From positions 1-40,409 of the forward strand of contig JAKSRT010000010.1 in NCBI GenBank assembly GCA_024403485.1: a stretch of 40,409 nt of DNA. The letters run 5' to 3'. Position 1 is the first letter of the stretch; every line of letters starts with the position of its first letter. The notes under the pieces are model-generated. The model did no database searches and had not been told where the DNA came from. It worked only from the letters and a program-made list of their open reading frames with translations. A program made the position numbers and the translations under genes. Shown piece after piece: positions 2,031 through 20,377 of the stretch. The DNA comes from Lachnospiraceae bacterium (lineage in GTDB: Bacteria; Bacillota; Clostridia; Lachnospirales; Lachnospiraceae).

Positions 2031-2068
2031 AAAGCGATGGTTGTATATCATATATCAACCATCGCTTT
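2031..2068. terminator. Bidirectional intrinsic terminator
   Basis: A perfect 13-bp inverted repeat (2031-2043 with 2056-2068, AAAGCGATGGTTG and its complement) lies between the convergent stops of the GH10 gene (2014) and the U32-like gene (2090). The plus transcript is followed by TTTATTATTT and the minus transcript by a run of T, so it can end both transcripts. Confidence 0.9.
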
Positions 2069-2089
2069 ATTATTTGTTTCTTTAGCAAA

Positions 2090-2980
2090 CTATTTTGTCA
2101 AGATTTTACTTAATATAGCACTGAGTTTCTTTCTTATAAACTCTTCTTCTCCATCCTTAACCAGGTAATACATATAAGAATCTATTACCATTTCCATCGG
2201 AAGTCCCCGGCCAACCAGTTTAAAGTTTACAAATCCCTTTTCTATATAATCCTCGATTTCTTCTTTTGAAATAAAGGCGGGGCGCTTTTTACATTCGGCA
2301 AATGAGGGGCGAACCTTAATATTGGGGCATTCAAAAGGCTTTCCTTTGTCCTGCTTAAGCTGCTGAAGTGATTCTGCCTTATAGTGATCCGATCTTTTGG
2401 GACAATTGGGGAAGCAAATCTCATCCACCAGAATCTCAACCTTGCCGGCCTCATCTTTCAAAGCCTGGATTACTTCGTTGTTATGATTAAGATCGTAATC
2501 CAGCACAACCATAAAATAGTCTTTGGCCAACTCACTCTTAAAATCCGCCAGATCAGTCAGACGCTTTGTGGTAGATGAAATATATTTGAAATTTGGATAT
2601 TTATCCCGAAGGTACTTTTCAAGAATCGGTGAATTACACAAAACCTGATTCATACCGTTGTCCGCAACGTCCATTATCATGTTGCAGTATTCATCGTGAG
2701 TATGAGCTTCCTCGATAAGAGAGTTGGTCCATGTAAATCTCACCGGAGTATCCATCTTGTTATAGGTATTAACAATAGCCTGCATATTGGCTTTTGATAT
2801 GCTGCCAAAGGCTGCCCTTCCACCGTTCCAGATTGCCCCGGGAAAGGTTCCGTATACGCTGCCGGCCTCATAACCGTCATTAAATTTTTCGGGATATTCC
2901 TTCATCAGATCGATAACCACCTGATTTAAGTAGAAATATACGCAAAACCCCGGCAAATGCCAGAAGACTTTTTTGTTCAT
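2090..2980 (-). CDS. U32-like TIM-barrel protein, paralogue 1 (function unknown)
   Basis: A 296-aa cytoplasmic protein, clearly paralogous to the next gene upstream. Shared blocks include LPG near the N-terminus, WNGGR, CN-x3-MDVA-x-NGMN, SPILE-x-YLR and a C-terminal NFKLVGR (~253-258). The last block matches the FKIEGR signature of the peptidase U32/UbiU-UbiV family. Four cysteines at about 189, 193, 218 and 230 (CFPNC, then two more) could hold an Fe-S cluster, as in UbiU/UbiV; that is inference. The start is set at the second ATG: the GAGGG ribosome site directly abuts the first ATG (2986) but is well spaced from 2980. It is the last gene of the operon from 13146 and ends at the 2031-2068 terminator. 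I cannot assign a substrate; proteolysis is not implied. Confidence 0.8.
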   Translation of the reverse strand: MNKKVFWHLPGFCVYFYLNQVVIDLMKEYPEKFNDGYEAGSVYGTFPGAIWNGGRAAFGSISKANMQAIVNTYNKMDTPVRFTWTNSLIEEAHTHDEYCNMIMDVADNGMNQVLCNSPILEKYLRDKYPNFKYISSTTKRLTDLADFKSELAKDYFMVVLDYDLNHNNEVIQALKDEAGKVEILVDEICFPNCPKRSDHYKAESLQQLKQDKGKPFECPNIKVRPSFAECKKRPAFISKEEIEDYIEKGFVNFKLVGRGLPMEMVIDSYMYYLVKDGEEEFIRKKLSAILSKILTK

Positions 2981-3035
2981 ATGCATCCCTCGGTATCAAA
3001 AATCGAAATCCCGGTTTATCCGATTACTGTTTTTC

Positions 3036-3989
3036 TTAAGGCCAAACACCGGGTTTAGGTCTTGAAACACTGATAACACCCATTTTATTTAAGTTCTTTA
3101 TCATCAAAAGTCTGGTTTCACCGATGTATTCGGGTTTAATCATATAATGACAATAGGTGTCAATAAGTGAAAATACATATGCTGTACGACCTTCGATTTT
3201 AAAGTTATTGATGCCTGCCGGAATATATTTATCCCAGATATCATCGGGTTTAATAACCGTAGGATAATCCTGAATAGTATGAATACAGTTATTCTCACCG
3301 TATTCGCAATACCATTCTTTAATGGGAATCTGCTTATCTTTAGGAAGTGTTCTGTTAAGAAGAACAACCTTCTGATCACGTGCTATCTGTCTGTAGTGCT
3401 CGCCTCTTCTCTTACAGTTTGGCTGGCAAAGAGTATTAACCAGTACCTCGAGTTTTTCAGGCTGATGCAGATTTCCGATAAAATCCCAGTTATTGTTAAG
3501 ATTATAATCAAGTACTACATACTTATAATCTTTGTCAATTTCCGCATTTAAATCGTCTACGTTCTTTATTTCCTTACAGGTTGAACTGTTGTATGCGAAA
3601 TTAGGATATTTCTCACGAAGATACTGTTCCAAAATCGGGGACATAATCATTACTTCGTTCATTCCGTTGTTGGCGACATCCATACAGTAATTACAGAAAG
3701 GATCGTCAAGATCGTTCTCGGTAATCAGGGGATTGGTAAAGGTATAACGAACCGGAATACCTCTCGCATTTATTGTTTTTACGACCTTCTCCACATACTT
3801 TGCATCACACTGGTCGTGCTGAATAAGTCGACCGCCGTTCCAAAGGGATACCGGGAAACAGCCAAAACATGAACCTATTTCAACGCCCTCTCTGAATCTT
3901 TCGGGATACTGCTCAAGTAAACTTACCCAGAACATATTTAAAGGATAATTATATCTAAGTCCCGGTAAATGAAATCTTGCTTTTGTCAT
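3036..3989 (-). CDS. U32-like TIM-barrel protein, paralogue 2 (function unknown)
   Basis: A 317-aa cytoplasmic protein without signal peptide or membrane segment. NFKIEGR at 262-268 is the best-known motif of the U32/UbiU-UbiV fold. Cysteines 188, 192, 228 and 235 (CQPNC, then CEYGENNC) sit where the paralogue also has four, suggesting a conserved metal or Fe-S site. It also shares VRYTFTNPL, MDVANNGMNEV and SPILEQYLREKYPNF with its neighbour. An AGGAGAG ribosome site lies 8 nt before the ATG. It follows the GH43 gene by 20 nt and precedes the paralogue, so all three are cotranscribed. Known U32-fold proteins act in O2-independent hydroxylation, tRNA modification or peptide cleavage; none explains the sugar context. 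Fold assignment rests on motifs only. Confidence 0.8.
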   Translation of the reverse strand: MTKARFHLPGLRYNYPLNMFWVSLLEQYPERFREGVEIGSCFGCFPVSLWNGGRLIQHDQCDAKYVEKVVKTINARGIPVRYTFTNPLITENDLDDPFCNYCMDVANNGMNEVMIMSPILEQYLREKYPNFAYNSSTCKEIKNVDDLNAEIDKDYKYVVLDYNLNNNWDFIGNLHQPEKLEVLVNTLCQPNCKRRGEHYRQIARDQKVVLLNRTLPKDKQIPIKEWYCEYGENNCIHTIQDYPTVIKPDDIWDKYIPAGINNFKIEGRTAYVFSLIDTYCHYMIKPEYIGETRLLMIKNLNKMGVISVSRPKPGVWP

Positions 3990-4009
3990 TACAAAACTCT
4001 CCTGCTAAA

Positions 4010-5587
4010 TTACTTTTCTTCAGCCGCAGCTTTGATTCTGTGGTAGTTAAATTCAGTAAACTGAACCTTTACTGCTTCGTCTCTGTCCACACCGTCCGTA
4101 GCAAAGATACCTACGGTACAACCTACAAATCCGCCGGCTACTTCTGTTGAAAGATCGGAAATATCAAGGTTTCTGATAACAGGGTCCACACCGTGCTTTG
4201 TTACTACAAAGCAGGAGGCCTTTACGCCGTCAACCTTTAATATGATTGATGCGGGACTGTCTGTAATCTTTTCTTCTGCCCATACTTCTTCAACACCGTT
4301 CTTAACAAGAATAACCTGTCCGATGCATTCACTTATTTCAAATCTTAGCTGATATTTATCATTCTGAACATATGCAAGACCGGCTCTTACACCCATATAA
4401 AGGTTATCGGTAAGGAATGTAGCCTTAGCTTCAAAGCAGTGCGAATCCTGTCTTATACATACATATGAAGGAGTAGCCAGTTCGGTAAGGTTATCGGTAC
4501 CTGCCTCAAGGAATAAGCCTTCGCCCTTTTCAAAGGTAGCAAATCTTTCATAGGATTTTCTAAGTGCCATCCATTCAGGACCAAACATACTCATCTTCTT
4601 AAAGTCATAGTCCTTATTCACGTTGGGAAGACTTGTAACGGGCTCAACAACTTCATATTCATCAAGATTGACTTTAAGCTGTTCCGATAATATACCAAGT
4701 CCGGCATTTACCACAGGCCAGTCGTTTTCCCAGATAACACGTGCCAGGAATGTTTCACGCCCCATGGTTGTAAACTCGTTGGTCGGTCTTACTGCCAGCA
4801 TAACCATATACCATTCACCGTTTACGGTCTGGAACAAATCACCGTGGCCCACATACTTAATGGGATAACGCTTTCCCAAATGTCTGTGGGTGAAAATGGG
4901 GTTGCAGAAATTGTTTTCGTAAGGACCGAATACATCCTTGGAACGGGCTACACTGATAGCATGTTCAGGACCGGTACCGCCTTCTGCATGAATAATATAA
5001 TAATAGTCATTAATCTTATAGAGATGAGGACCTTCGGGCCAGTGAACTCCTCTCATGGCACCGTTCCAAACGTTCTTAGGCTCACCTATAAGCTTAAAGC
5101 TTTCAATATCAATTTCCTGAATGTAGATAAACCAGTCACCGTCATATCTGCATCCGTCGGGATTGGGATGAGTTCCGATATAGTAACACTTTCCGTCTGT
5201 GTCAAAGAAAAGGCTTGGATCGATACCGTCTGCTCCATCAATATAATGAGGCTCTGACCAGGGACCTTCGGGATCTTCAGCAGTAACAATATAATTTCCG
5301 CCAAAAGAAACATTCGTGCAGATTACGTAGAAGGTACCGTCGTTATAACGGATTGTAGGGGCAAAAAGACCGTTTGAATGAGGAGCTCCTTCCAGAGGAA
5401 GCTGGGACTCTCTGTCCATAACATTACCGATCTGCTCCCAGTGAGCAAGGTCCTTACTGTGCATGACAGGAAGACCGGGAAAATATGCAAAAGATGAATT
5501 TACAATATAAATATCATCATTTACAACACATGCTGAAGGGTCCGGATAAAAACCGGATAACAAAGGGTTTTCTGTAATAACTGACAT
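4010..5587 (-). CDS. Intracellular GH43 beta-xylosidase / alpha-L-arabinofuranosidase
   Basis: Glycoside hydrolase family 43, an inverting five-bladed beta-propeller enzyme. The catalytic triad is visible: base Asp16 (FYPDPS), pKa-modulating Asp123 (GIDPS) and acid Glu185 (WPEGPH). The propeller occupies about residues 5-320. The rest (~330-520) is the beta-sandwich usual for long XynB-like GH43 enzymes. There is no signal peptide, so it should act on imported xylo- or arabinoxylo-oligosaccharides. Which sugar it releases cannot be told from sequence; both activities occur among close relatives. It has a good AGAGGA ribosome site and starts 25 nt after the preceding ATPase gene. It is placed in the same operon as an efflux-type ABC transporter, which is unusual for a GH43 gene. 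Confidence 0.93.
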   Translation of the reverse strand: MSVITENPLLSGFYPDPSACVVNDDIYIVNSSFAYFPGLPVMHSKDLAHWEQIGNVMDRESQLPLEGAPHSNGLFAPTIRYNDGTFYVICTNVSFGGNYIVTAEDPEGPWSEPHYIDGADGIDPSLFFDTDGKCYYIGTHPNPDGCRYDGDWFIYIQEIDIESFKLIGEPKNVWNGAMRGVHWPEGPHLYKINDYYYIIHAEGGTGPEHAISVARSKDVFGPYENNFCNPIFTHRHLGKRYPIKYVGHGDLFQTVNGEWYMVMLAVRPTNEFTTMGRETFLARVIWENDWPVVNAGLGILSEQLKVNLDEYEVVEPVTSLPNVNKDYDFKKMSMFGPEWMALRKSYERFATFEKGEGLFLEAGTDNLTELATPSYVCIRQDSHCFEAKATFLTDNLYMGVRAGLAYVQNDKYQLRFEISECIGQVILVKNGVEEVWAEEKITDSPASIILKVDGVKASCFVVTKHGVDPVIRNLDISDLSTEVAGGFVGCTVGIFATDGVDRDEAVKVQFTEFNYHRIKAAAEEK

Positions 5588-5611
5588 ATATAGTATCCTC
5601 TCAATATATTA

Positions 5612-6490
5612 TTAAGGTTTTGTGATAATGATTTCGTTATCTTTTGTTGTTATTTTAACCTTATTATCGGATAGACCAAGGCTCTCAATCAGTTCTGCCG
5701 GAATCTGGACACGATTTGCGCGGTCCAATACCGCATATTCATCCTGAGTATCTTCTTCTCTCCAATCGATATTTGTTTCCTTAAGACGATCAGAATACTG
5801 CTCTTTTAATACACGTTCGGAACTGATTTTTCCGTCTCTTATCGCTACTACTCTTCGAACTTTTTTAGAAAGTGCCACATCATGGGTAACAATAAGAATT
5901 GTCTGCCCATTTCTGTTCAACTCCGTAAATACATCAAAAATATAGTCGGCTGTTTTAAAGTCTACACTACCTGTAGGTTCATCGGCAAGTAAAAGTTTAG
6001 GATCGTTGGCCAGCGCAATGGCAATGGCTATACGCTGCTGTTCACCACCGGAAAGCATATTCATACGATTATGCTTTTTGTGTGCCATACCTACCATTTC
6101 AAGAAGTTCCATCGCTTTATCATGCTTATGCTTTGTGCTTGATAAATTCATCGGAAGCATTACATTTTCAAGTGCACTCAAAAACGGCAGCATATTACGA
6201 CCGTCATTCTGCCAAACAAATCCAACCGTGTCCCTTTTATATTTAACCAGTTCCTTCTCACTCATGGTAAAGAGGTTTTTACCTGCTACCCATAGAGAGC
6301 CCGCACTTGGCTTATCAAGTCCGCCGATCATATTAAGGAATGTTGATTTACCGCTTCCGGAATTACCGATAATAGCTGTAAGTTCCCCTTCTTCGACCTT
6401 TAAGTCCAGACCCTGCAGTGCCAAAACTTCGGTTTCTTTTGTCTTATAAATTTTAACGAGGCCGTCAGCCTTAATCATATCATCAGCCAT
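5612..6490 (-). CDS. MacB/LolD-type ABC ATPase with a C-terminal AbrB-like domain
   Basis: ATP-binding subunit of a type VII (MacB/FtsX) ABC transporter. The nucleotide-binding domain (1-~225) has Walker A GNSGSGKS (42-49), Q-loop Gln94, signature LSGGE (146-150), Walker B LLLADE (166-171) and switch His203, so it looks catalytically intact. MacB-type ATPases normally end near residue 230. This one continues through a charged linker into ~254-292 (DRANRVQIPAELIESLGL... then EIIITKP), which fits the swapped-hairpin AbrB/SpoVT fold (R-x-x-IP-x-E-L-...-LGL). Such domains usually dimerise and bind DNA. The gene overlaps the other ATPase gene by 8 nt, and the two probably form a heterodimer under the FtsX permease. 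The transported substrate is unknown. Confidence 0.9.
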   Translation of the reverse strand: MADDMIKADGLVKIYKTKETEVLALQGLDLKVEEGELTAIIGNSGSGKSTFLNMIGGLDKPSAGSLWVAGKNLFTMSEKELVKYKRDTVGFVWQNDGRNMLPFLSALENVMLPMNLSSTKHKHDKAMELLEMVGMAHKKHNRMNMLSGGEQQRIAIAIALANDPKLLLADEPTGSVDFKTADYIFDVFTELNRNGQTILIVTHDVALSKKVRRVVAIRDGKISSERVLKEQYSDRLKETNIDWREEDTQDEYAVLDRANRVQIPAELIESLGLSDNKVKITTKDNEIIITKP

Positions 6491-7166
6491 ATATTCTCAC
6501 CCCGTTTTCAAGTTCTATAATCTCATCTGCAGCTCCCATCAATCCCACATCATGGGTAGTCATAAGAACCGTAATGCCTTCTTTTCTGGTCATTTCCTTA
6601 AAGAGTTCCGTAACTCTTGCAGCCATCTGTGAATCAAGCTCCGCAGTAGGTTCGTCGGCCAGAATCAGCTTCGGACTGTGAGCAATCGATCTGGCTATGG
6701 CAACTCTCTGCTGCTCACCACCCGACATTTCCGCCGGCATATGATTCATACGATTGTGAAGTCCAACAAGTCTTAAGCATTCTTCAACTCGTTTGTCGCG
6801 TTCTTTTGACGGTTTAATACCTGCCATTCTCATGGAAAATTCCACATTTTGAAATGCATTCAATGAAGGTATCAGAGAAACCGACTGAAAAACAAAACCA
6901 AGTTCTTTTCTTCTTAAATTTTCACGCTGCTTCTCATTAAGACCTTTTATGGCCGTTCCGTTAATGAAAACTTCACCGTTTGTAGGGTCATCCAATGTAC
7001 CGATAATGTTCATCAGTGTTGTTTTACCGGAACCGGAACGTCCCTTCAAAATGGCAAAGGTTCCCTTTGAAACTTCAGCATCTATTCCTTTTAAAGCGGT
7101 GAACTCGCCACCCGGCACAGGGAATACTCTCGTAACGCCCTGAGCCTTAATTACAAAATCACTCAT
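6483..7166 (-). CDS. MacB/LolD-type ABC ATPase
   Basis: A 227-aa ATPase, the standard length for the MacB/LolD/YknY group. It has Walker A GRSGSGKT (42-49), Q-loop Gln94, signature MSGGE (147-151), Walker B LILADE (167-172) and switch His205. The start is set at the ATG at 7166, which has GAGGA at the right distance; a TTG four codons earlier overlaps that ribosome site and is unlikely. It lies 27 nt after the permease gene and overlaps the AbrB-fused ATPase gene by 8 nt, so the pair is probably translationally coupled. It should power the FtsX permease rather than the sugar permeases, whose ATPases (MsmX type) look different and are longer. Confidence 0.92.
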   Translation of the reverse strand: MSDFVIKAQGVTRVFPVPGGEFTALKGIDAEVSKGTFAILKGRSGSGKTTLMNIIGTLDDPTNGEVFINGTAIKGLNEKQRENLRRKELGFVFQSVSLIPSLNAFQNVEFSMRMAGIKPSKERDKRVEECLRLVGLHNRMNHMPAEMSGGEQQRVAIARSIAHSPKLILADEPTAELDSQMAARVTELFKEMTRKEGITVLMTTHDVGLMGAADEIIELENGVRIYG

Positions 7167-7193
7167 TATATTCCTCAACTAACCGTCAAAGTG

Positions 7194-9995
7194 CTATTCT
7201 TCACCAAGTTTAAGAGCCTTGGTAACATTCATTCGAGAAAGAATTGCTGCCAATACGCCGAGAGCCAAAAGCATTACCAGCCCTATTACAGCATACAGTC
7301 TGTACATGTCCGAAGCCACCATGATTAATTTCATGGGAAGCGCCTGATCCTGTGATGCATAAGCCTGCTGGAGAATCGGAACAAATAATGTTGAAGTAAG
7401 TTTACCTATTCCTATTCCTGCCAGTACAGAAAACAGACCGCAGAATATCTGCTCATTTATAAGCATCGTCATGATCTCTGATTTATGTAAACCCGTTGCT
7501 CTGAGTACACCGAAAATCAATTCTCGTTCTCTTATGGACATAACCCAGTAAATCAGGTATCCGACAGCACATAATACTATGGTAACAACAAATCCCATTG
7601 TAAGGACACCGTTGGTACCCTGAAGCAAAGGATCCGATAATGTGGACTCCATTTTACTGATTTTATTAACGTACTTGCTGACTTCAACATTGTTATCAAC
7701 AATCCAGTTATAAACATCAATCTCCTTGGCATCTTCAACAAGCTTTATCCACACTTCGTAAGGAGTGGTTCCCCATTTGCTTACAAGATAATCATAATGT
7801 GAAACTATCAGGAAATTATCTTTTGTATAAGCGGTTCCATCCGCATTCAGTCCGTTTTCCGTTGCTGAATATCCGGGGAAATAATCCACAAATCCGATAA
7901 CCGTTCCTATAGCATATTTTTTCTTGTTGTTGTAGAAGGTAATGGAATCACCCTCTTTGTAACCGTATATCGTCTGGAAATTTTTTGACAAAAGAACTCC
8001 GTCCTCAACTACGGCAAGATCATTTAAAAACTCATAATAGTTTTTATCAAGAAGCGACCTGTCTACCATTGTCTGGGTACCGAATTCCTTGGTATTTATT
8101 CCCATAACGGTAACAAACAACATTTCATTTCCGGATTGTTTTATGGAAGCTTTATCATCAAATATTACTTTTGTGTGCATTTGAGCAGCTTCCATTGAAT
8201 TATATTTCGAATAATTCGGAACCACATAGTCACCGGTTGAAACTCCGTATCTATCAGCCAGTTCAACCCAGTTTTCCTTGATAATCACATCGGTTCCGGC
8301 AAGATATTCCGTATTGTCTATTGCATTCTCAAGAATTGTACGTGCAACGGTTGCATGATACATACCAAGAGAAATTGTCATAATCAGAAACAGCATAATA
8401 AGCTGCTGCTTTCTTCCGTTCTTTATGTTTTCCATGAAAGAAACATGGCTGGCCGGTCCCCAGTGGTTTTTCCCGATTAAATATATCAACCTTACGATGT
8501 AAGGCTGAATACGCAGGAAGAAAAGACCTGCACCAAGAATAAATACCGAAGAGCTTATGTATAAAAGCGGATCGAGACTTTCTCCTTCCAAAACAGTATT
8601 GGAAAGATTGCCACCGTTTTTATTGAAGCTGTAATATCCGTATATCGAAACGCCGAGAAGTATTATATCCAGGAACAGCTTCTCCCACCAGGCTTTTCTT
8701 TTAGCCGCCTTCGACTGCTTAAGCTTTACAATCGAAACCTTACTGTGTTTAATCGAAGGTACAACAATGCTCAATAAGCAAACAAAAACTGCCGCACAAA
8801 GATATATAAATGATTCTTTTGTATATGCCACATTCAGCGTTTCCGATAAGTCAAATTCTAAGAAGTTTCTTGTAGAGCCAAGCATTTTTGCAAACAGCGC
8901 TCCAAGAGGCAATCCAAGTATTCCACCTGTAATTGTTATAAACAATCCCTGATATAAATAAAGCAGAATAATCTGGCCTTTAGAACTTCCTCGGCTCTTA
9001 ATAACCGATATTTCGTTCTTCTCCATCTCATACATCTGACTCGATATCATAAAGAGGAAGGTTGCCAGCATTGCAAGAATCGGAATCTGTAAAATAAGCA
9101 ATGTTGTGGAAATTCTTGATACTCTTATATTATAGCTTGCAAATACATCAAGATATGCAGGCTCTTTAAGAACCGACCTGTATGAGCTTTCTTTATACAG
9201 GTAATCAGTCAGTTTTGAAATCCGTTCCACATCCGATGCCTTTAGATCCTGATAGTCAAAAAGAACACTGACACTGCTTACCAGTGAAAATTTGCTGGCG
9301 TTATCGCCTGTAAAACGCTCTCTGAAAACATCCGGATTACAAAGCAGCATATCATTAAGTGCTTCCGGTTTTGTTTGCCAGAAGTACCCCGAGTTATCGG
9401 CAGCATCAAATACGCCGGTAACATACATTCTGATAAGCTCTCCGTTCTTATATCTGAGATCATCATAAGTAAAATATTCACCTACAAGAACACCGAGATT
9501 TATAAGACAGGACTGGCTTACAACACATTCTATTGCCCCGTCTTCGGTAACACCTGTATCGGAATACATTTCACCGGAAAGAATTGTAGCATGTTCAGGC
9601 ATATTGTTGATTGCACCAAGACGTGCCGTCAGTCCCTGTCCGTCTTTTCTCTTTGTTTCCGAACTTATTTTAAGTGAGGTAAGATTTATCAGAAAAAAGG
9701 TCTCTTTTTCTTTAACGCCCATAGTATCGTAAAAATACTTCGGGAAATCATCCATTTTCTTAATGGTGCCGCCGCCTGTTTCTTTTTTAACCGAAACGTT
9801 TCCGTAAACAAGTGCAGCCCACTTACCTTGAGAAATTGTGTAATTTTCAAATTCGTCATTTAACATTCTGTCATATGCGGCAGAACGATAAATGGGAAAA
9901 CTTACTACTGTAGCAGTCAAAAGAATACAACCCAGGAGAAGGCAAACATTCATCCACTTTTTATGCCACATTTTTTGTAACATTATTCTAAACAT
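7194..9995 (-). CDS. FtsX/MacB-type ABC permease with two FtsX domains
   Basis: A 933-aa integral membrane protein. It has an N-terminal TM (~15-37), a large extracytoplasmic domain (~40-290) and then three TMs forming the first FtsX domain, whose MEKNEISVIKSRG loop is typical of FtsX permeases. Further TMs and a second extracytoplasmic domain (~550-790) follow. Three C-terminal TMs form the second FtsX domain, with ERELIFGVLRATGL as the equivalent loop. About ten TMs in one chain make it a full permease, so one copy with two ATPases completes the core. MacB relatives export peptides, lipids or antibiotics, or transmit force, rather than import sugars. The start has AAGGA 8 nt upstream and overlaps the end of the adaptor gene by 13 nt. 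The substrate is unknown. Confidence 0.92.
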   Translation of the reverse strand: MFRIMLQKMWHKKWMNVCLLLGCILLTATVVSFPIYRSAAYDRMLNDEFENYTISQGKWAALVYGNVSVKKETGGGTIKKMDDFPKYFYDTMGVKEKETFFLINLTSLKISSETKRKDGQGLTARLGAINNMPEHATILSGEMYSDTGVTEDGAIECVVSQSCLINLGVLVGEYFTYDDLRYKNGELIRMYVTGVFDAADNSGYFWQTKPEALNDMLLCNPDVFRERFTGDNASKFSLVSSVSVLFDYQDLKASDVERISKLTDYLYKESSYRSVLKEPAYLDVFASYNIRVSRISTTLLILQIPILAMLATFLFMISSQMYEMEKNEISVIKSRGSSKGQIILLYLYQGLFITITGGILGLPLGALFAKMLGSTRNFLEFDLSETLNVAYTKESFIYLCAAVFVCLLSIVVPSIKHSKVSIVKLKQSKAAKRKAWWEKLFLDIILLGVSIYGYYSFNKNGGNLSNTVLEGESLDPLLYISSSVFILGAGLFFLRIQPYIVRLIYLIGKNHWGPASHVSFMENIKNGRKQQLIMLFLIMTISLGMYHATVARTILENAIDNTEYLAGTDVIIKENWVELADRYGVSTGDYVVPNYSKYNSMEAAQMHTKVIFDDKASIKQSGNEMLFVTVMGINTKEFGTQTMVDRSLLDKNYYEFLNDLAVVEDGVLLSKNFQTIYGYKEGDSITFYNNKKKYAIGTVIGFVDYFPGYSATENGLNADGTAYTKDNFLIVSHYDYLVSKWGTTPYEVWIKLVEDAKEIDVYNWIVDNNVEVSKYVNKISKMESTLSDPLLQGTNGVLTMGFVVTIVLCAVGYLIYWVMSIRERELIFGVLRATGLHKSEIMTMLINEQIFCGLFSVLAGIGIGKLTSTLFVPILQQAYASQDQALPMKLIMVASDMYRLYAVIGLVMLLALGVLAAILSRMNVTKALKLGEE

Positions 9996-12091
9996 ATCTT
10001 TGTTCCTTCACTAAGCCCTTCTGCTACCCAATAATATGTGCTGTCGGAACCCCCGGCAACGAAGCTCTTATATACAGGGTTATTATTCTCATCAAGAACC
10101 GTAACATAGGTTATTCCGTTTTCCATGTATACCGCTCCCTTTGGAACCAGCACAACATTGTCCATAGATCTGGTATCAACAGTCACCGCAAAATGACTTC
10201 TCATCCACCAGCCGTCATTTCCCTGATTCGAAGCTGACATTTTTTCCAAATCTTCGGTCGATACCTGAATAAGTGCATAACCCGTAGTAATTCCTGTCGT
10301 TAATGCACAGGGTGCAACCGTGACAACCGTTCCGACTGCTTCCAACTTCTGGCCGCCTGCTTCATATTTGATATTCGCAGTGTTTCCGCAGGTAAGCTGT
10401 CCGTTTTTATCTTCTACGGCCACGAAACAGTTTTCTTCTGCTGAAATCTGAACTACCTTTGCTTCTTTAAAAAGAATGTCGCCCTCTTCATAATTATACA
10501 CAGCCGTAATAATGCCGTTATAAGGAGCTTTGAGTTCAACAAGCGCTGCATCTCTCTGCATTTTACTGATTTTTTCGTTAAGTCTGTCTATATAATCGCG
10601 CTGATTCTTAATAGCTCTGGTTTCTTCTTTTCCCTTATTATCCTTGAGCATTTCATTAAGGTCTTCGGTAGCTCTCAGCAAAGTTCTCTGAGTACGACGA
10701 AGATTTATCGAATCCTGCGCAACATGTACTCTTGCAATAACCTGTCCCTGCTCAACTCTTTCGTATTTTTTTACTATTATTTCATCAATATATGTTGTTC
10801 CGTATTCTACCGGGTTTGTAATCCAGTCGGTTTTTGAGTAAAAAAGATATCCGTTTTCCTTGAAGGTTGCTCCAATCAATCCCTTCTTAACAGTATCTGT
10901 TTTTGTTCCGTTCTTGTCGTTCTTCAACTCACAGATAATCTTATCTCCCGCTTCAAGACCTGATACCACTTCGGTATACAGTCCGCTGGACAGTCCTGTT
11001 TTTATCGGAGTTCTATATGTATTTTCACCGTCATATGTATATACAAAAGCTCCATCCTGATCTGTGCTGACCGAGCTTTTAGGCACACATAAGACATTTT
11101 CTTTTCGATTTGAAACAATCACAATTGCTGCAAAGTCACCGGCTTTAACAGTTTTTTGAGGATCGTCCAGAATAAAGGTGGAATATTTCTGTTCTTGATT
11201 TGATGCGTTTTCTTCTTCCTCCAAATTTAAGTCCTTGTATTGAATTTCATAACGAACCCCGTTTACAAGGGCATATGCGTCATCAGCTCTCTTTACCTCG
11301 CTTTTGTAAATCCAATCTGTTTTTACTTCAAGCTGATTGAAATCACCGATTGCAGCAACCGGTACATTGCGTTCAATATATGTATCACTGTCATAGAAGT
11401 TGATTGCTACAACCGTCCCGGATGTTCCTGCGAGAGCCAGTACATTGTTCCTTTTTGTATTTAGTCTCGCAAGTTTTTGTCTGTTATAATCCGAATCGAG
11501 ATCATACAATTCCGATTTTTCTTTCATGTCCTGGGTAAGTTTCTCATAACGTACGATGGCACTTTGACATTTTCCTTTGTAAATATCGTATTCTTTTTCA
11601 TAACCAAGACCACCGTAAGCCTTCTGCTCATCCTCGGTCATCACTTCAAAGTTATGGCAGATATCCTCATAGCGTTCCATATCAGACTTTGCTATAGCAA
11701 TTTTTTCCTTTGTCTCCTTTAGGAAATAACTATAATCTTCAAGAGCCAAATCCATTTCTTCTTTTTTCAGCTTTATCTGCTCATCAATCTGCTTTGTTGA
11801 AGCATACATTACCGGTGTTTCTTCACTGACTTCGGTTCCGGGAAGGGCTCCGTATTTTTCAAATCTCTGATCCGTTGAAAAAGAAACCTCTGTAGTCTTT
11901 GGTACTACCTTGCCGGGTAATACTTTATAAGCTACCAAATCCCTATATTCGGCCAACACGTAATCCGCGCTGACACCTACCGGATCGATAAGCTCAATCT
12001 GCTGTTCATCTGCATTTTCTTTGGTCTCACATCCGCCGAGAAGAGAAGCGGCAAGAATCAAAGAAATCATAGTATATACTCGTTTTTTCAT
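9983..12091 (-). CDS. Double membrane-fusion (HlyD/MacA-like) lipoprotein
   Basis: A periplasmic-adaptor-type protein of 702 aa, about twice the usual MacA/YknX length. It has a lipoprotein signal ending LLGGC, so Cys21 would carry the lipid. The chain holds two adaptor modules in tandem. The first has a coiled-coil hairpin (~100-215), a lipoyl/barrel region and a beta-rich end (~250-400). The second starts near 430 (EIIVKKYERVEQGQVIARV), has a shorter hairpin (~455-520), ELKAPYNGIITAV and another beta-rich end to 702. The gene joins its upstream neighbour through a TAATG overlap and its downstream neighbour by 13 nt. In a Gram-positive envelope such adaptors extend a MacB permease outward. 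The fused duplication is unusual, and each half could fill one position in an adaptor ring. Confidence 0.87.
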   Translation of the reverse strand: MKKRVYTMISLILAASLLGGCETKENADEQQIELIDPVGVSADYVLAEYRDLVAYKVLPGKVVPKTTEVSFSTDQRFEKYGALPGTEVSEETPVMYASTKQIDEQIKLKKEEMDLALEDYSYFLKETKEKIAIAKSDMERYEDICHNFEVMTEDEQKAYGGLGYEKEYDIYKGKCQSAIVRYEKLTQDMKEKSELYDLDSDYNRQKLARLNTKRNNVLALAGTSGTVVAINFYDSDTYIERNVPVAAIGDFNQLEVKTDWIYKSEVKRADDAYALVNGVRYEIQYKDLNLEEEENASNQEQKYSTFILDDPQKTVKAGDFAAIVIVSNRKENVLCVPKSSVSTDQDGAFVYTYDGENTYRTPIKTGLSSGLYTEVVSGLEAGDKIICELKNDKNGTKTDTVKKGLIGATFKENGYLFYSKTDWITNPVEYGTTYIDEIIVKKYERVEQGQVIARVHVAQDSINLRRTQRTLLRATEDLNEMLKDNKGKEETRAIKNQRDYIDRLNEKISKMQRDAALVELKAPYNGIITAVYNYEEGDILFKEAKVVQISAEENCFVAVEDKNGQLTCGNTANIKYEAGGQKLEAVGTVVTVAPCALTTGITTGYALIQVSTEDLEKMSASNQGNDGWWMRSHFAVTVDTRSMDNVVLVPKGAVYMENGITYVTVLDENNNPVYKSFVAGGSDSTYYWVAEGLSEGTKICLE

Positions 12092-13146
12092 TACTTCTTA
12101 ACTACCTTTTCCCCTTCTTCCAAACCACTCAGAATTTCTACTCTTTCATCACCGAACAGTCCGATTTCGACATATCTTATTTCTCGAATATTGTCCTCAG
12201 ACAATGTATAAACAAAGGCCTTATCTCCGGCTTCATGCACCACTTCTTTGGGAAGTGACAAAACATTTTTTCTGGTATCAACAACCGGATACAATGTTCC
12301 GTATGTTCCAACTTCAACAGTTTTATTATCAGGACCGGTATATACACTAAATACCATTGTGTCTTCCCATGTATCCATCTGATAAGGAGTAACAATGTAG
12401 TCGCCGGCTGCGGCCGAATAGCTGACTGTCATATCAACCATGTCGCCCTCGTGAAAAAGATCTTTGTACTCGGTATCCTTTACCACAAAAAGAATTTCAC
12501 TCATATCAATGATGGTCATAATAACCTTGCCCTCTTTGGATGTTGACCCGCGAAGCTTCTTATCAAGCTTATAAACCGTTCCATCCATTGTTGCATAAAG
12601 GCGACTGTTTCTAAGTTCTGCCTGCTTGGCCGCAAGCTCTTCACGGTCAAATTCCAGATCATCATTTATTAGTGTACGCTGTCTTGCATATCGGTCTCTT
12701 ACTGCCTGTGTCTCTTCCTCACCGAAGATGCCGATAAGGAACAAATCCTGTAGTTCCAAAGACTGATCCATATCAAGGTAACTTAAGCGGAGCTCATTCC
12801 TTTTAATCTTGTATGTTAAATCCTCAATTTCTTCCTCTAGAGATGCTGATGAAAGCTCACAAAGTAAGTCCCCTTTTTTTACGGTTTCACCTTCTCTGAC
12901 ATACACTTTGTCTACATATTTACCTGTTACCGAAAAAGATACTTCCTGATCCTTAGTCTGAACAGAAGTACAGTCAACTCTCTGTGTAAGAACCACATCT
13001 TCAATAGATGCAGAAACAAGGCTGTAGGAAATTGTATTATCTTCGGAATCAACAACCACATTGGGAACAGTCTCGGTTTTTGTACAACCACTAAAAAGCA
13101 GTAATATTGATATAATCAGTGGAGTAAATAATTTAATACGTCTCAT
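12091..13146 (-). CDS. Membrane-fusion (HlyD/MacA-like) lipoprotein
   Basis: A 351-aa adaptor of normal length. The lipoprotein signal ends LFSGC (Cys21). A beta region (VSFSVTGKYVDKVYVREGETVKKGDLLCEL, lipoyl half-motif) leads into a helical hairpin (~105-190), then the second lipoyl half (ATMDGTVYKL), a barrel and a C-terminal domain ending GLEEGEKVV, which is typical of RND/MacA adaptors. It is the first gene of the exporter operon, and its stop overlaps the next start (TAATG). GAGGA lies just before the ATG. The partner is presumably the FtsX permease. Having two different adaptor genes for one permease suggests a mixed adaptor assembly; that is inference. Confidence 0.9.
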   Translation of the reverse strand: MRRIKLFTPLIISILLLFSGCTKTETVPNVVVDSEDNTISYSLVSASIEDVVLTQRVDCTSVQTKDQEVSFSVTGKYVDKVYVREGETVKKGDLLCELSSASLEEEIEDLTYKIKRNELRLSYLDMDQSLELQDLFLIGIFGEEETQAVRDRYARQRTLINDDLEFDREELAAKQAELRNSRLYATMDGTVYKLDKKLRGSTSKEGKVIMTIIDMSEILFVVKDTEYKDLFHEGDMVDMTVSYSAAAGDYIVTPYQMDTWEDTMVFSVYTGPDNKTVEVGTYGTLYPVVDTRKNVLSLPKEVVHEAGDKAFVYTLSEDNIREIRYVEIGLFGDERVEILSGLEEGEKVVKK

Positions 13147-13333: not shown

Positions 13334-13366
13334 AAAGGGACAATGCCCGGAAAACATTGTCCCTTT
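13334..13366 (-). terminator. Intrinsic terminator of the sugar-transport cluster
   Basis: A perfect 12-bp inverted repeat (13334-13345 with 13355-13366, AAAGGGACAATG and its complement) is followed on the minus strand by a run of T. It lies 39 nt after the stop of the solute-binding protein gene, and separates the CUT1 cluster from the exporter operon downstream. Confidence 0.9.
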
Positions 13367-13404: not shown

Positions 13405-14916
13405 TTACTGGTTAGCTTCATCAATGTACTGCTTAGCGATATCTCTCATACCATCAATGATTTCAGAGATAGTAGATGTGGTATCAGGACCAATTGCCCA
13501 TAAGAAAGGAGCATCCATGAATTCACCACTGTTAGGAATAATTGCCTGTAATTCAACAGTTGAGTTAGCACCCATTAACGGTACGGTTTCTTCACAAGCT
13601 CTTGTATCGAAGTTACCTGTACGAGTTGTATTAATGAAAGGATTGTAATCTTCGTAACCGGGAACATATGCATTCCACATGCTGTAAGCGAAAGCAGCCT
13701 TCCAAGCCTTATCAGCATCGTAGCAAGCAGGAATAAGGTACATGTTGTCCTGAGCTGTCTGGATAAGAGAACCCTTAGGTCCCTTAGGGAACATAACGAA
13801 ACCAAGTCCGTCTTCTGTTTCCATATCAGCGAATAAGTTACCGGGAGCTGCGCAGTACTGCTGATCTACTAAGAATGCAGCGCCGCCACTCTTGAACTGT
13901 CCCTGATAGTAATCCCATGATGCTGCATTTCCTTCTTCATCAGCGGGACCATTCCAGTCATACTTCTGGAATACACCAAGAATCCATTCAAGTGCTTCAA
14001 GAGTTTCAGCTGATTCGAAGTTGTAAACGAACTTACCTTCAGCATCTCTAGTTACATAGCTACCGCCGTTTGAAAATACAGCTGCAGATGTTGCAACACC
14101 TTCGTTAACTGCAAGACCCCAGATATCGATGGTACCATCGTTGTCAAGGTCTCTTGTTGTCTGAGCGAGCATCTTTTCAAACTCTTCCCATGTCCAAGTA
14201 TCATTTGCCTGCATATCATAGATTGATTCAGGATCAATACCAGCTTCAGAAAGAAGCTTCTTGTTGAAGTATACACCTGTACGAGGTTCAGCAGGACCTG
14301 TATGCATAGCATAAATGCTTGAACCGAATGTATATAATGCATGACAGTTGTTATCTGTGAACATCTTGTCAGAGAAATCAAGACAATCAATTGTAGCAAG
14401 GTCATAAGCAAGACCGCTCTTCATAGCAGAAAGAATTGTACCGCCACCTGAGTGTGTGGTGAATACGTATGTTTCATCATCTCCGCCTGCAGAAACGTAA
14501 TCTACGAAATCCTGGTTAACTGTTCCCCAGTCACCCATTGTTACGGTGTGAATCTTGAAGTTATAAGTTTCCTGAACCCATTCACGATAATCGTTAACAG
14601 CTTCTTCGTAGTCTGTCTTAGGTTCTGCAGGATTTTCAAAGTTATCAGCTGTGAACCAGTCACGGATTGTTACTGTGATACCACCAAGGTCATAAGCTTC
14701 GCCGGTAGCAGGATCAGTAATTACTGTGTACTTGCTAACTTCTTCTTCTACAGAAGCTTCAGGAGCAGCGTCATCAGTAGATGCTTCAACAGATGCTTCG
14801 GGAGCAACGTCGGTAGAAGCAACAGGTGTTGCGGTTTCGCCACAAGCTGTAAGAGCAAAAGTCATTGCAGCAGCCATAGAAGCAGCGAGAACCTTTTTAG
14901 CCATAGGTCTTCTCAT
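13405..14916 (-). CDS. CUT1 extracellular sugar-binding lipoprotein
   Basis: Solute-binding protein of a carbohydrate uptake ABC transporter, 503 aa. It has a lipoprotein signal ending LTAC (Cys25) and an Ala/Ser/Glu-rich spacer (~30-60). A periplasmic-binding-protein fold follows, including the calcium-loop-like DLDNDGTIDIWG segment common in this family. It should catch xylo-oligosaccharides outside the cell and pass them to the permease pair encoded just upstream (15138-17049); the ligand is inferred from context. A strong AAGGAGG ribosome site precedes the ATG. Unlike its neighbours it is set apart by 221 nt holding a promoter-like -10 box and several repeats, so it can be transcribed alone and at a higher level than the permeases. 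Confidence 0.93.
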   Translation of the reverse strand: MRRPMAKKVLAASMAAAMTFALTACGETATPVASTDVAPEASVEASTDDAAPEASVEEEVSKYTVITDPATGEAYDLGGITVTIRDWFTADNFENPAEPKTDYEEAVNDYREWVQETYNFKIHTVTMGDWGTVNQDFVDYVSAGGDDETYVFTTHSGGGTILSAMKSGLAYDLATIDCLDFSDKMFTDNNCHALYTFGSSIYAMHTGPAEPRTGVYFNKKLLSEAGIDPESIYDMQANDTWTWEEFEKMLAQTTRDLDNDGTIDIWGLAVNEGVATSAAVFSNGGSYVTRDAEGKFVYNFESAETLEALEWILGVFQKYDWNGPADEEGNAASWDYYQGQFKSGGAAFLVDQQYCAAPGNLFADMETEDGLGFVMFPKGPKGSLIQTAQDNMYLIPACYDADKAWKAAFAYSMWNAYVPGYEDYNPFINTTRTGNFDTRACEETVPLMGANSTVELQAIIPNSGEFMDAPFLWAIGPDTTSTISEIIDGMRDIAKQYIDEANQ

Positions 14917-14944
14917 AATAAATTTATCCTCCTTTTGGATGTCG

Positions 14945-14959
14945 GTGACATTTTGTCAC
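14945..14959. promoter_or_regulatory. Perfect dyad GTGACA-N3-TGTCAC at the start of the binding-protein transcript
   Basis: A perfect 6-bp inverted repeat with a 3-nt centre. It begins directly after the expected transcription start (~14961) of the 13405-14916 gene and upstream of its ribosome site. It may be a repressor operator or a small 5' hairpin; the sequence cannot decide between these. Confidence 0.4.
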
Positions 14960-14967
14960 TAAATAAA

Positions 14968-15011
14968 ATTATAATTACAGTTTCAAAACTCTTTCCGGGA
15001 ATTTCAAAACT
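14968..15011 (-). promoter_or_regulatory. Candidate AraC-activated promoter: 21-bp-spaced direct repeats and TATAAT box
   Basis: On the minus strand a perfect TATAAT (14973-14968) lacks a consensus -35. Two exact copies of AGTTTTGAAA (plus strand TTTCAAAACT at 14981-14990 and 15002-15011) lie 21 bp apart, on either side of the -35 position. Direct repeats two helical turns apart beside a weak -35 are typical of AraC-family activator sites. The link to the regulator encoded at 27048 is inferred. Confidence 0.5.
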
Positions 15012-15057
15012 ATAAATTACTTTACGTTAACATTTTATACATATTTTGTTTATGATT

Positions 15058-15106: not shown

Positions 15107-15137
15107 TAAACATATGAATATTCTTAAGATTTATTAA

Positions 15138-16148
15138 TTACATCTTAATACCGGTACTTGAAATACTTTCAACAAAGGCCTTCTGTGCAAATAAGTAAAC
15201 CACAAGAATAGGGAATACAATCATTAATGTACCTGTTGAAAGAATACAGTTTGAAAGCTGAGTAGATACACTAACCTGTGCATTGGCAACACCCTGTTCA
15301 CGGGCAATGTATACACCGAGTGAATCTACGATGGTTGAAAGTGATGTACTGACAAGAACCTTCTTACCAAGGAAAAGCTTTGAATAAAAACCGTCTGTCC
15401 ACTGCCATACCAAAGAGAACAGGAAGCAGGAGGTAATAATGGGCTTTGCTTCAGGAAGCATAATCCTTACGAATGTCTTTAACATACCGCAACCATCAAC
15501 ATATGCTGCTTCTTCAAGGTCTACGGGAATATTTCTGAAGAACTGTCTTACAAGATAAATATACAATCCGTTCTTAAGACCCATACAGGTAGCACTCATG
15601 AGGTAGTAAGGAAGAACCGAACCTCTTAAGTTGATTGTTTCACCCTTGATTGCCTTAACAAGTCCCAGGAAATCCCAGTTTGCAAAGTGAAGATACAATG
15701 AACTTGAAAATGCCTGAGGAGGAATGATAATCATTGCAAAAACACAGCCAAACCAAAACTTCTTTAAGGGGAACTTAAATCTTGCAAAGCCATATCCAAC
15801 AATGGTACACATAGCTGTCTGAAGCATAGCAATCGTAACAGCAATTATGGTTGAGTTCTTTAAGCCTTCTTTATAGCTCATGATCTTTGCGGCAGTCTGA
15901 TAATTCTGTCCGGTAAAGTGAAGAGGAATCGATACAACAATAGGATCGTATAAGTCAGACTCTTCCATGAAACTTACCGAAACCTTGTTTAAAATGGGCT
16001 GTAAAATCAGGAAGCACATACCAAAAAGCAATACAAATCGTGCTATAGCCCAAAGAACGTTCATTACGTCTCTCTTAAATAAGTATCCGCCGGACTTTCT
16101 GTTTCTATCCCAATAGGTACTATACTTTTTTTCTTTTACTTTAGTCAT
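15138..16148 (-). CDS. CUT1 sugar ABC permease (LplC/MalG type)
   Basis: A 336-aa inner-membrane permease of the binding-protein-dependent carbohydrate family. It has about six TMs, the first near 33-52. The cytoplasmic EAA loop that docks the ATPase is at ~211-232 (EEAAYVDGCG...LP). It pairs with the LplB-type permease upstream; the two genes overlap by 8 nt and are translationally coupled, with AGGGGGT as ribosome site. The nearest solute-binding protein gene is the next one downstream (13405-14916). No MsmX/UgpC-type ATPase is encoded in the window, so a shared ATPase from elsewhere in the genome must power it, as is common in Firmicutes. Confidence 0.93.
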   Translation of the reverse strand: MTKVKEKKYSTYWDRNRKSGGYLFKRDVMNVLWAIARFVLLFGMCFLILQPILNKVSVSFMEESDLYDPIVVSIPLHFTGQNYQTAAKIMSYKEGLKNSTIIAVTIAMLQTAMCTIVGYGFARFKFPLKKFWFGCVFAMIIIPPQAFSSSLYLHFANWDFLGLVKAIKGETINLRGSVLPYYLMSATCMGLKNGLYIYLVRQFFRNIPVDLEEAAYVDGCGMLKTFVRIMLPEAKPIITSCFLFSLVWQWTDGFYSKLFLGKKVLVSTSLSTIVDSLGVYIAREQGVANAQVSVSTQLSNCILSTGTLMIVFPILVVYLFAQKAFVESISSTGIKM

Positions 16149-17049: not shown

Positions 17050-17078
17050 TTTCAACTAACCTTTCGATTCTTTCTATA

Positions 17079-19691: not shown

Positions 19692-19720
19692 AACTACTCC
19701 CATTTACTGTTTATTTTTAC

Positions 19721-20377
19721 TTACAATCTATACAATAGTTCCTTACCCAGGGAAATGAAGTAAGCAACGCCCTGAGAAATCATACTAAAGAAGAGTAACA
19801 GCAAGAATATCATTACCAACATTGCGAATGCAGTAGCAACAAGGAAAAGAATATTCTTTGCAAATGAATACTCATGAACCTGACTCATTCCAAGAATTCC
19901 GATAAATGCTATCCAAACCATGGAAATAAGACTGATTACCGCATAGAATTCAGCTTCATCTACAGTAACGAAGTTACTAAAAATCATTAGAGGTAACTGA
20001 ACCAAGGGATACGGAGTAAGTGCATAGCATGTGGCTATATAAACCTGACCGAGACGTCCTTTACCATCAAACAGTGTGGTAAGCGCCCAGTTTCCTATAA
20101 CAAACAGGAACAACGGTAATATAATACTGGCCACATAAGTAATAATATTGAGTTCTTCCCAATATACCTGAATGAACAGGAAGCTTGTAAAACGAAGCTT
20201 CATTATTCTTATTACAATCGTAAGGAATAAAATTGTGTTTGCTGCAGCATAGGTTCCTCTTCTTTCATGGGTAAGATCCCAGAAACCATCAAGAGGATGA
20301 GTTAAACAATATAAAGCGAATTTCAAACTCTTAATATATCGCTGCCAATTTTCTTTGCTGATTAAAGATGTAAACAT
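19721..20377 (-). CDS. Yip1-family integral membrane protein
   Basis: A 218-aa protein with about five to six TM helices and no soluble domain. The N-terminal HPLDGFWDLTHERRG segment just before the first TM and the internal FDGKGRLGQ...TCYALTPYPLV loop match the Yip1 domain. Bacterial Yip1 proteins have no settled role; here the gene sits within a sugar-transporter operon, 15 nt after the NHL protein gene and 29 nt before the DUF5696 gene. NHL/Yip1/DUF5696 is a recurrent trio next to CUT1 permeases, suggesting a membrane complex with the transporter; that is inference. Confidence 0.85.
   Translation of the reverse strand: MFTSLISKENWQRYIKSLKFALYCLTHPLDGFWDLTHERRGTYAAANTILFLTIVIRIMKLRFTSFLFIQVYWEELNIITYVASIILPLFLFVIGNWALTTLFDGKGRLGQVYIATCYALTPYPLVQLPLMIFSNFVTVDEAEFYAVISLISMVWIAFIGILGMSQVHEYSFAKNILFLVATAFAMLVMIFLLLLFFSMISQGVAYFISLGKELLYRL

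What the first reader, a model, noticed from the sequence alone, without database searches (positions are those of the whole stretch)
2090..13146. MacAB-like exporter cotranscribed with GH43 and two U32-like proteins: a possible undescribed system
Eight genes with gaps of at most ~55 nt and several overlaps encode two adaptor lipoproteins, an FtsX permease, two ATPases, a GH43 enzyme and two U32-fold paralogues. They end at a single terminator. An efflux-type machine welded to a xylan enzyme and putative Fe-S proteins fits no pathway I know. It could export or surface-deliver a modified product, or act as an envelope force transducer for the sugar transporter.
Basis: partly seen in the sequence, partly recalled or inferred. 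Interest (0 to 1): 0.75.

Follow-up and report, generated by a model that had tools for sequence, protein, structure and literature searches.

The report
Envelope pump recruited to xylan locus
A gut or rumen bacterium carries a MacAB-like ATP-driven envelope pump, built from unlike parts, beside the genes it uses to take up and digest xylan; related bacteria keep the two together, but what the pump moves is not known.

Summary
The eight genes are there, tightly packed, with a hairpin at the end. They are not one unit of descent.

(1) MFP1-MFP2-FtsX-ATP1-ATP2 is a separate module: a heteromeric MacAB/YknXYZ-like ABC machine with three adaptor units, a one-chain two-half permease and two different ATPases. 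ATP2 ends in an AbrB-like domain. The module also occurs alone.

(2) GH43 is an exchangeable, probably cytoplasmic xylosidase: near the module in 23 of 42 testable loci.

(3) The last two proteins are divergent and U32-like, with four conserved cysteines each; their wider family also occurs alone.

The steady partner lies upstream: a double sugar importer (SBP2-P2a-P2b-NHL-Yip1-DUF5696-P1a-P1b-SBP1). Its NHL-to-P1b order holds in 34 of 35 other stretches, none of which holds a detectable pump permease or adaptor. Linked pumps form one clade; the pump lies downstream of the importer in 44 of 48 testable loci, upstream in others (searches set: one more family).

Cargo and direction are inferred. 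Verdict: new variant of a known machine.

The parts
12091..13146 (-). MFP1, adaptor lipoprotein with one MFP unit (351 aa)
   Evidence: RND_mfp E=8.6e-26, HlyD_D23; lipobox in sequence; beside FtsX in 52 of 52 testable loci
9983..12091 (-). MFP2, adaptor lipoprotein with two fused MFP units (702 aa)
   Evidence: RND_mfp in two stretches; profile matches to MacA structures; N and C halves resemble MFP1 and each other, hhalign 99.9/98.8/98.4%
7194..9995 (-). FtsX-type permease, two FtsX halves in one chain, two large extracellular segments (933 aa)
   Evidence: PF02687 in two stretches; hydropathy; nearest solved chains LolC, FtsX, LolF, YtrF
6483..7178 (-). ATP1, FtsE/LolD-type ATPase (231 aa)
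   Evidence: beside FtsX in 50 of 50 testable loci
5612..6490 (-). ATP2, LolD-type ATPase with C-terminal AbrB-like domain, residues about 250-292
   Evidence: MazE_antitoxin E=6e-4, under the cut-off; profile comparison with AbrB/SpoVT E=1.7e-5, shuffles far lower; tail shared by 68 of 68 rows, 0 of 65 ATP1
4010..5587 (-). GH43 beta-xylosidase-like enzyme with GH43_C2, no signal sequence seen
   Evidence: PF04616 E=3.9e-86, PF17851; no hydrophobic N-terminus
3036..3989 (-). U32a, divergent U32-like protein (317 aa); Cys 99, 188, 192, 228
   Evidence: PF01136 E=1.2e-4; collinear profile matches; cysteines at least 98% conserved in 41 rows
2090..2986 (-). U32b, paralogue of U32a (298 aa); Cys 101, 191, 195, 220
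   Evidence: 42% identical to U32a; cysteines 100% conserved in 39 rows; PF01136 only E=0.15
2031..2069 (-). terminator-like hairpin, shared with convergent GH10 gene
   Evidence: sequence, fold
13334..13366 (-). terminator-like hairpin between SBP1 and MFP1
   Evidence: a comparable hairpin in 18 of 46 related gaps
13405..14916 (-). SBP1, sugar-binding lipoprotein of the double importer
   Evidence: PF01547; gene order
15138..16148 (-). P1b, importer permease
   Evidence: PF00528
16141..17055 (-). P1a, importer permease
   Evidence: PF00528
17079..19703 (-). DUF5696 protein, one N-terminal membrane helix; N-terminal stretch resembles a 3,6-anhydro-D-galactosidase
   Evidence: PF18952 E=1.1e-190
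19721..20377 (-). Yip1-family membrane protein
   Evidence: PF04893
20392..21942 (-). NHL-repeat protein with a C-terminal membrane helix
   Evidence: PF01436
21966..22865 (-). P2b, importer permease
   Evidence: PF00528
22867..23805 (-). P2a, importer permease
   Evidence: PF00528
23823..26798 (-). SBP2, large membrane-anchored binding protein
   Evidence: PF13416; N-terminal helix

Best explanation
The block is a heteromeric MacAB/YknXYZ-like (type VII) ABC machine that an ancestral Lachnospiraceae lineage tied to a xylan version of an older, widespread double sugar importer. Two different ATPases (ATP1, ATP2) work on one chain that holds both FtsX halves. Three adaptor units (MFP1 plus the two fused in MFP2) would make, in two copies, the six-unit adaptor tube known from MacA and Spr0693. 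ATP turnover in the cytoplasm should drive movement of the outside domains and tube, moving a molecule that is already outside the membrane away from it while the cell feeds on xylan. GH43 is a cytoplasmic passenger that trims imported xylo-oligosaccharides; the U32-like pair is an accessory of the xylan locus, probably Fe-S proteins. Shown here: domains, gene order, three adaptor units in many relatives, AbrB-like tail, linkage to the importer. Inferred: hexamer, outward direction, cargo, Fe-S clusters.
For: Domains. Adaptor units: three MFP stretches upstream of FtsX in 15 of 19 stretches examined (8 in clear MFP1/N-half/C-half order; 7 with weaker or mixed assignment), split into three genes in some and 1+2 in others. 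Linkage: importer genes upstream in 44 of 48 testable loci; importer downstream instead in L058/L202, L056/L203 and G116 (L092/L145). Tree of 47 permeases: linked rows fall in one 31-row clade, support 100/100, with one unlinked row (L087) and one undecided (L075) inside. Another family, G575: MFP-FtsX directly before SBP2-...-SBP1. Co-occurrence in 150 family genomes, one per genus: FtsX and DUF5696 15/4/16/115, p=4.5e-9; still 11/0/4/10, p=5e-4 among GH10 carriers and 4/4/12/105, p=0.009 among the rest. Mechanism of relatives: PMC5985334, PMC5768738 (passages).
Against: Nothing shows cargo, direction or expression. FtsX also co-occurs with GH10 (11/8/14/117, p=1e-5), so shared fibre-degrading lifestyle explains part of it, and Fisher tests ignore phylogeny. 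Most importers have no pump nearby, and L181 is a xylan importer cluster without it, so the pump is not needed for import as such. Outside the family most FtsX relatives fetched show one recognised adaptor, and 10 of 21 have no ATPase hit within the stretch, so the three-adaptor two-ATPase plan is shown only for part of the wider family. Four of 19 stretches were not resolved. No structure could be predicted.
Confidence: 0.5

Rival explanations
1. Lol-like surface delivery: the machine pulls lipoproteins or membrane-bound proteins of the xylan locus (for example SBP1) from the membrane and passes them through the adaptor tube into the wall.
For: Nearest solved permeases by profile are LolC and LolF; ATP2 scores best to LolD, below its cut-off; in Paenibacillus cellulosilyticus the order is ATPase-adaptor-permease-ATPase-solute-binding protein; SBP1 is the direct upstream neighbour here.
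Against: LolD/FtsE/MacB ATPases are close to each other, so the best name says little; importers without the pump keep their SBPs; no adaptor is part of LolCDE (recalled).
Confidence: 0.15
2. Ordinary efflux pump (peptides, phenolics or antibiotics from rumen plant matter) that happens to sit in and be expressed with the xylan operon, with no role in xylan use.
For: Module is stand-alone elsewhere; GH10 co-occurrence points to shared lifestyle; hairpin before MFP1 allows separate expression in part of the clade (18 of 46 gaps).
Against: Linkage kept despite moves to either side of the importer, and seen again in another family.
Confidence: 0.25
3. The U32-like pair is an anaerobic, UbiU-UbiV-like Fe-S hydroxylase that modifies an aromatic or sugar compound freed from xylan, and the pump exports the product.
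For: Two unlike U32 paralogues of about 317 and 298 aa with four conserved cysteines each resemble the UbiU-UbiV heterodimer of about 330 and 300 aa (PMC6747719, passages); the >=48%-identical U32a group occurs in 7 of 150 genomes, all 7 with the pump; a carboxylesterase stands in related loci such as L042.
Against: Only three of the four cysteines lie in the interval where U32 proteins have theirs and the spacing differs from the published motifs; no pathway partner seen; the wider U32 family is often solitary; U32 is absent from four pump loci and halved in one of 42, so the pump does not need it.
Confidence: 0.07
4. ATP1 and ATP2 energise the sugar importer, which has no ATPase of its own in the operon.
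For: No ATPase gene lies in the nine-gene importer.
Against: Importers elsewhere lack these ATPases too; ATP1/ATP2 are FtsE/LolD-type and stay with FtsX in 50 of 50 testable loci, also where no importer is near. Such importers commonly use a shared ATPase such as MsmX (recalled).
Confidence: 0.04

Closest known systems
MacAB and Gram-positive Spr0693-0694-0695 (PMC5985334, PMC5768738, passages)
   Same: FtsX-type permease with outside domain, FtsE/LolD-type ATPase, MFP adaptor; profile of MFP2 hits MacA chains
   Different: One adaptor gene and identical halves there (6:2:2); here three adaptor units, two permease halves in one chain, two unlike ATPases, AbrB-like tail, and a sugar importer as neighbour
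Bacillus subtilis YknWXYZ (PMC4338810, passages)
   Same: Gram-positive MFP-ATPase-permease set with a Yip1-family partner (YknW); here a Yip1 gene lies six genes upstream of MFP1
   Different: Here Yip1 belongs to the importer, also where no pump is near; no link to a peptide toxin seen
LolCDE / LolDF
   Same: Nearest solved permease chains by profile; ATP2 closest to LolD by score
   Different: LolCE family models score far below cut-off (33.9 against 362 bits); adaptors present here
UbiU-UbiV and other U32 proteins (PMC6747719, passages)
   Same: Two unlike paralogues of similar size; four conserved cysteines each; partial sequence resemblance
   Different: Cysteine spacing differs; family score below or far below cut-off; no known substrate
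Gram-positive polysaccharide utilisation loci of Roseburia/E. rectale (PMC5320581, passages)
   Same: ABC importers, GH43, GH8, AraC regulator; one published xylan locus lists two ABC systems
   Different: The passages seen do not mention a MacAB-like pump, DUF5696, Yip1 or U32 proteins in those loci

Membership tests
MacAB/YknXYZ-like type VII ABC machines | FtsX-type permease with large outside domain after the first helix | tested here: met
   PF02687 twice; hydropathy peaks with long outside segments between about 35-299 and 550-790
MacAB/YknXYZ-like type VII ABC machines | FtsE/LolD/MacB-type ATPase | tested here: met
MacAB/YknXYZ-like type VII ABC machines | MFP adaptor encoded with it | tested here: met
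MacAB/YknXYZ-like type VII ABC machines | Hexameric adaptor tube on a permease dimer | not testable with these tools
MacAB/YknXYZ-like type VII ABC machines | Drives movement of substrates on the outer side of the membrane | not testable with these tools
   needs experiment
LolCDE | LolC/LolE family score over cut-off | tested here: not met
   33.9 bits against 362.45
Peptidase U32 (PF01136) | Score over the curated cut-off | tested here: not met
   21.9 against 22.4 bits for U32a, 11.7 for U32b
Peptidase U32 (PF01136) | Four conserved cysteines for a 4Fe-4S cluster | tested here: inconclusive
   Four conserved cysteines in each but with another spacing than the published motifs
AbrB/SpoVT swapped-hairpin domain (ATP2 tail) | Family score over cut-off | tested here: not met
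   20.2 against 24.7 bits; 4 of 24 members at E<=0.01
AbrB/SpoVT swapped-hairpin domain (ATP2 tail) | Profile resemblance along the domain | tested here: met
   E=1.7e-5, probability 78.7%; best of 50 column shuffles 1.6% (one of the 19 AbrB rows, L261, was a wrong-frame row)
Gram-positive polysaccharide utilisation locus | Glycosidases, importer and regulator together | tested here: met
   GH10, GH43 twice, GH8, two importer permease pairs, AraC

The most novel reading that the evidence does not exclude
Pump and double importer form one physical trans-wall machine: the ATP-driven FtsX/adaptor engine works on the outer side of the membrane to feed or release long xylan chains at the two importers, a single-membrane counterpart to TonB power for SusCD, with the AbrB-like tail pairing two engines.
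Probability: 0.08. Interest if true: 0.9.

Novelty: new variant of a known kind. Interest (0 to 1): 0.55.

Why it matters
MFP-dependent ABC machines of Gram-positive bacteria have few known jobs, and the role of an adaptor where there is no outer membrane is called open in the passages of PMC4338810 and PMC5985334. A version encoded with a xylan importer gives an inducible growth phenotype to test. The unlike-part design (three adaptor units, two ATPases) would let each position in the ring be changed on its own. The nine-gene double importer, kept in order across many families of the phylum, seems undescribed in the papers searched (no paper with DUF5696; one search gave nothing apt) and deserves study by itself.

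Tried and rejected
Rejected: eight genes as one evolutionary system (pump, GH43 and U32 separate in relatives). Rejected: ATP1/ATP2 as importer ATPases. Rejected as unsupported: ATP2 tail as DNA binder; the arginine pair that AbrB uses (recalled) is not kept in the printed rows. Led nowhere: Rfam scan, 0 matches at gathering scores; PDB profile search for U32, 0 matches at E<=0.1; Pfam scan of the ATP2 alignment, only 4 of 24 members for MazE_antitoxin; paper searches for xylan+Roseburia+FtsX (0), xylan+Butyrivibrio+HlyD+ABC transporter (1, on Dictyoglomus, listing only), AbrB with ABC ATPase (nothing apt in the listings). A regular expression for the AbrB-like tail matched only 33 of 68 rows because its spacing was set wrongly; the profile test replaced it (trained on 51 near rows: 17 of 17 distant rows; trained on 17: 51 of 51; ATP1 control 0 of 65 both ways).

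Selections made before counts: one search used ATP2 ORFs over 250 aa and over 45% identity (67 of 69 such best-hit ORFs). The tree used 46 of 71 long FtsX ORFs plus the window; I dropped most odd-numbered loci and cut-off ones to save time. Thresholds were mine: FtsX E<1e-60, DUF5696 E<1e-90, GH10 E<1e-20, U32a at least 48% identity. Order counts by tblastn ignore genes unlike window genes. My ORF caller picked antisense ORFs in some loci (for example L044, L060, L093), so four of 19 stretches are unresolved.
Full report
Observation. The eight minus-strand ORFs at 13146-2090 are present and packed with gaps of at most 49 nt and three overlaps. Pfam and NCBIfam give two RND_mfp-type adaptors (the second with two matched stretches), an FtsX permease with two FtsX stretches, two ABC ATPases, a GH43 with GH43_C2, and two proteins that only brush the U32 family. 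A hairpin with a T-run follows the last gene. A second, 15-bp hairpin with a T-run lies between SBP1 and MFP1; a comparable hairpin was found in 18 of 46 related SBP1-MFP1 gaps, with different stem letters and a similar loop, and not in many gaps of about 90 nt.

Host. The window is contig C2 of a genome of 2.19 Mb in 125 contigs, 73% complete. Named relatives of the permease with 71% identity are Lachnospiraceae from rumen and gut.

The pump is its own module. In 150 genomes of the family, one per genus, 19 have a long FtsX match at E<1e-60 (my threshold). Twenty-kilobase stretches around most of them show MFP, FtsX, ATP1 and ATP2 genes without the xylan genes. In the class, 57 of 391 genomes match the FtsX profile at E<=1e-30. 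The wider kin are less uniform: of 21 stretches (20 from that search, one from a Paenibacillus plasmid) 11 show both ATPases by tblastn and 10 show neither at the locus, and most show one recognised adaptor.

Adaptors. Profiles of MFP1 and of the two halves of MFP2 match one another (hhalign 99.9, 98.8 and 98.4%). Of 19 stretches scanned, eight show the three units in clear order, either as three genes or as one plus a fused pair (L091, L092, L094, L095, L096, L097, L098, L100); seven more show three adaptor stretches with weaker or mixed assignment (L101, L103, L104, L105, L106, L107, L108); four are unresolved (L093, L099, L102, L109). With two permease halves in one chain and two unlike ATPases, two copies of three units would give the six of MacA on MacB and of Spr0693 (6:2:2, PMC5768738, passages). 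This stoichiometry is inferred.

ATP2 tail. ATP2 ends in about 40 residues that resemble the AbrB/SpoVT swapped-hairpin domain. The Pfam score is under the cut-off (20.2 against 24.7 bits) and only 4 of 24 aligned members match at E<=0.01. A profile of 68 tails against AbrB/SpoVT rows from related genomes gives E=1.7e-5 and 78.7%, while the best of 50 column shuffles reaches 1.6%. One of the 19 AbrB rows was a wrong-frame row. The tail is shared by all 68 rows, near and distant, and by 0 of 65 ATP1 proteins. Nine class-level ATP2 proteins and the Paenibacillus one show it too. Solved homologues align only up to about residue 247. Pairing of two engines is the likelier use, since AbrB's arginine pair (recalled) is not kept.

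The importer. Upstream lie SBP1, P1b, P1a, DUF5696, Yip1, NHL, P2b, P2a and SBP2. In 35 stretches around other DUF5696 genes, 20 from a draw over the phylum and 15 from genomes of the family or behind pump loci, NHL-Yip1-DUF5696-P1a-P1b holds in 34; the 35th (L203) is cut by the contig end. P2a-P2b stand in front in 28, with SBP2 before them in 27. None of the 35 stretches contains an FtsX, MFP or U32 hit over 60 bits with window queries; for L202, L203 and L204 the pump lies just outside or on another contig. Window queries may miss distant adaptors. DUF5696 has one membrane helix, and its N-terminal stretch matches a 3,6-anhydro-D-galactosidase chain.

Linkage. Of 58 loci, 48 have enough upstream sequence and 44 of these hold SBP1, P1a, P1b and DUF5696 upstream of MFP1. 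The exceptions are L058, L075, L087 and L078; L078 starts inside SBP1. In L058 (with L202), L056 (with L203) and G116 (L092 with L145) the importer lies downstream of the pump instead; for L075 the importer is on another contig (L204). L087's genome has only a distant DUF5696 (28% identity). On a tree of 47 permeases the linked rows form one 31-row clade with support 100/100, together with L075 and L087. So one tie, then shuffling with linkage kept, is the simplest history. In G575, of another family, an MFP-FtsX pair without its own ATPases stands directly before SBP2-P2a-P2b-NHL-Yip1-DUF5696-P1a-P1b: 1 of 20 class-level stretches. FtsX and DUF5696 co-occur in 15 of 19 pump genomes against 16 of 131 others (p=4.5e-9). 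GH10 co-occurs as well (11 of 19 against 14 of 131, p=1e-5), so lifestyle matters; inside GH10 carriers the pump-DUF5696 link remains (11/0/4/10, p=5e-4), and outside it is weaker (4/4/12/105, p=0.009). These tests ignore kinship.

Passengers. GH43 is within reach in 23 of 42 testable loci, U32a in 38, U32b in 37. Eleven loci have the same order without GH43, and the U32 genes can lie between SBP1 and MFP1 (L047, L050, L078, L079, L085). Other loci carry GH115, GH3, an FGGY kinase, a GH120-like protein or a carboxylesterase near the end, all fitting xylan. U32-like relatives occur in 33 of 150 genomes (E<=1e-8), most of those inspected standing alone. Each paralogue keeps four cysteines (U32a 99, 188, 192, 228; U32b 101, 191, 195, 220). 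UbiU and UbiV, a heterodimer of U32 proteins with one 4Fe-4S cluster each, have other spacings (PMC6747719, passages). The seven genomes with a U32a at least 48% identical all have the pump (7/12/0/131, p=1.7e-7), though kinship may account for it.

How it most likely works. By its parts it should work like MacB: ATP use inside drives movement outside, without carrying substrate across the membrane (PMC5985334, passages). In a xylan locus it most likely clears or moves some extracytoplasmic molecule during feeding. Candidates are breakdown by-products, lipoproteins, or the glycan itself. The evidence does not choose among them. The bold reading, a force engine for glycan uptake, is not excluded.

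Novelty. Machine class known; the unlike-part design, the AbrB-like tail and the tie to a double importer were not found in the papers searched (the library lacks most subscription papers). The Butyrivibrio xylan transcriptome paper (PMC6344614, passages) has no occurrence of macrolide, efflux, U32 or HlyD in its main text.

Noticed in passing
window 5612-5740: C-terminal AbrB-like domain on an ABC ATPase, shared by 68 of 68 aligned ATP2 rows and 0 of 65 ATP1.
   Followed up: yes
window 13405-26798; L172-L191, L202-L216: Nine-gene double sugar importer with NHL, Yip1 and DUF5696 genes, in nearly fixed order over the phylum.
   Followed up: partly
L105, L106, L108: Stand-alone pump modules next to DUF6034 lipoproteins (several in tandem in L105 and L106), with a two-component system in L106.
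   Followed up: no
L283 13224-20351: Paenibacillus cellulosilyticus plasmid: ATPase, adaptor, FtsX permease (25% identity), ATPase with AbrB-like tail, then a solute-binding protein.
   Followed up: partly
L287, L291-L295, L298, L299, L301, L302: FtsX-MFP pairs of other families with no ATPase hit at the locus; they may share ATPases encoded elsewhere.
   Followed up: no
L181: Lachnospiraceae xylan cluster with GH10 and the double importer but no pump and no U32 genes.
   Followed up: partly
window 13366-13334: Terminator-like hairpin after SBP1 with a TTTTCCGG-type loop that recurs in relatives with other stem letters.
   Followed up: partly
window 386-2014: Convergent GH10 xylanase with signal sequence and C-terminal hydrophobic stretch.
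   Followed up: no
window 31719-40392: Chemotaxis and flagellar-type genes (CheD, CheA, CheB, sigma factor, FapA) flank the xylan locus.
   Followed up: no
L056 10.8-15.9 kb: Between pump and importer lie two further ABC-type ATPase genes around a DUF1854 gene.
   Followed up: no
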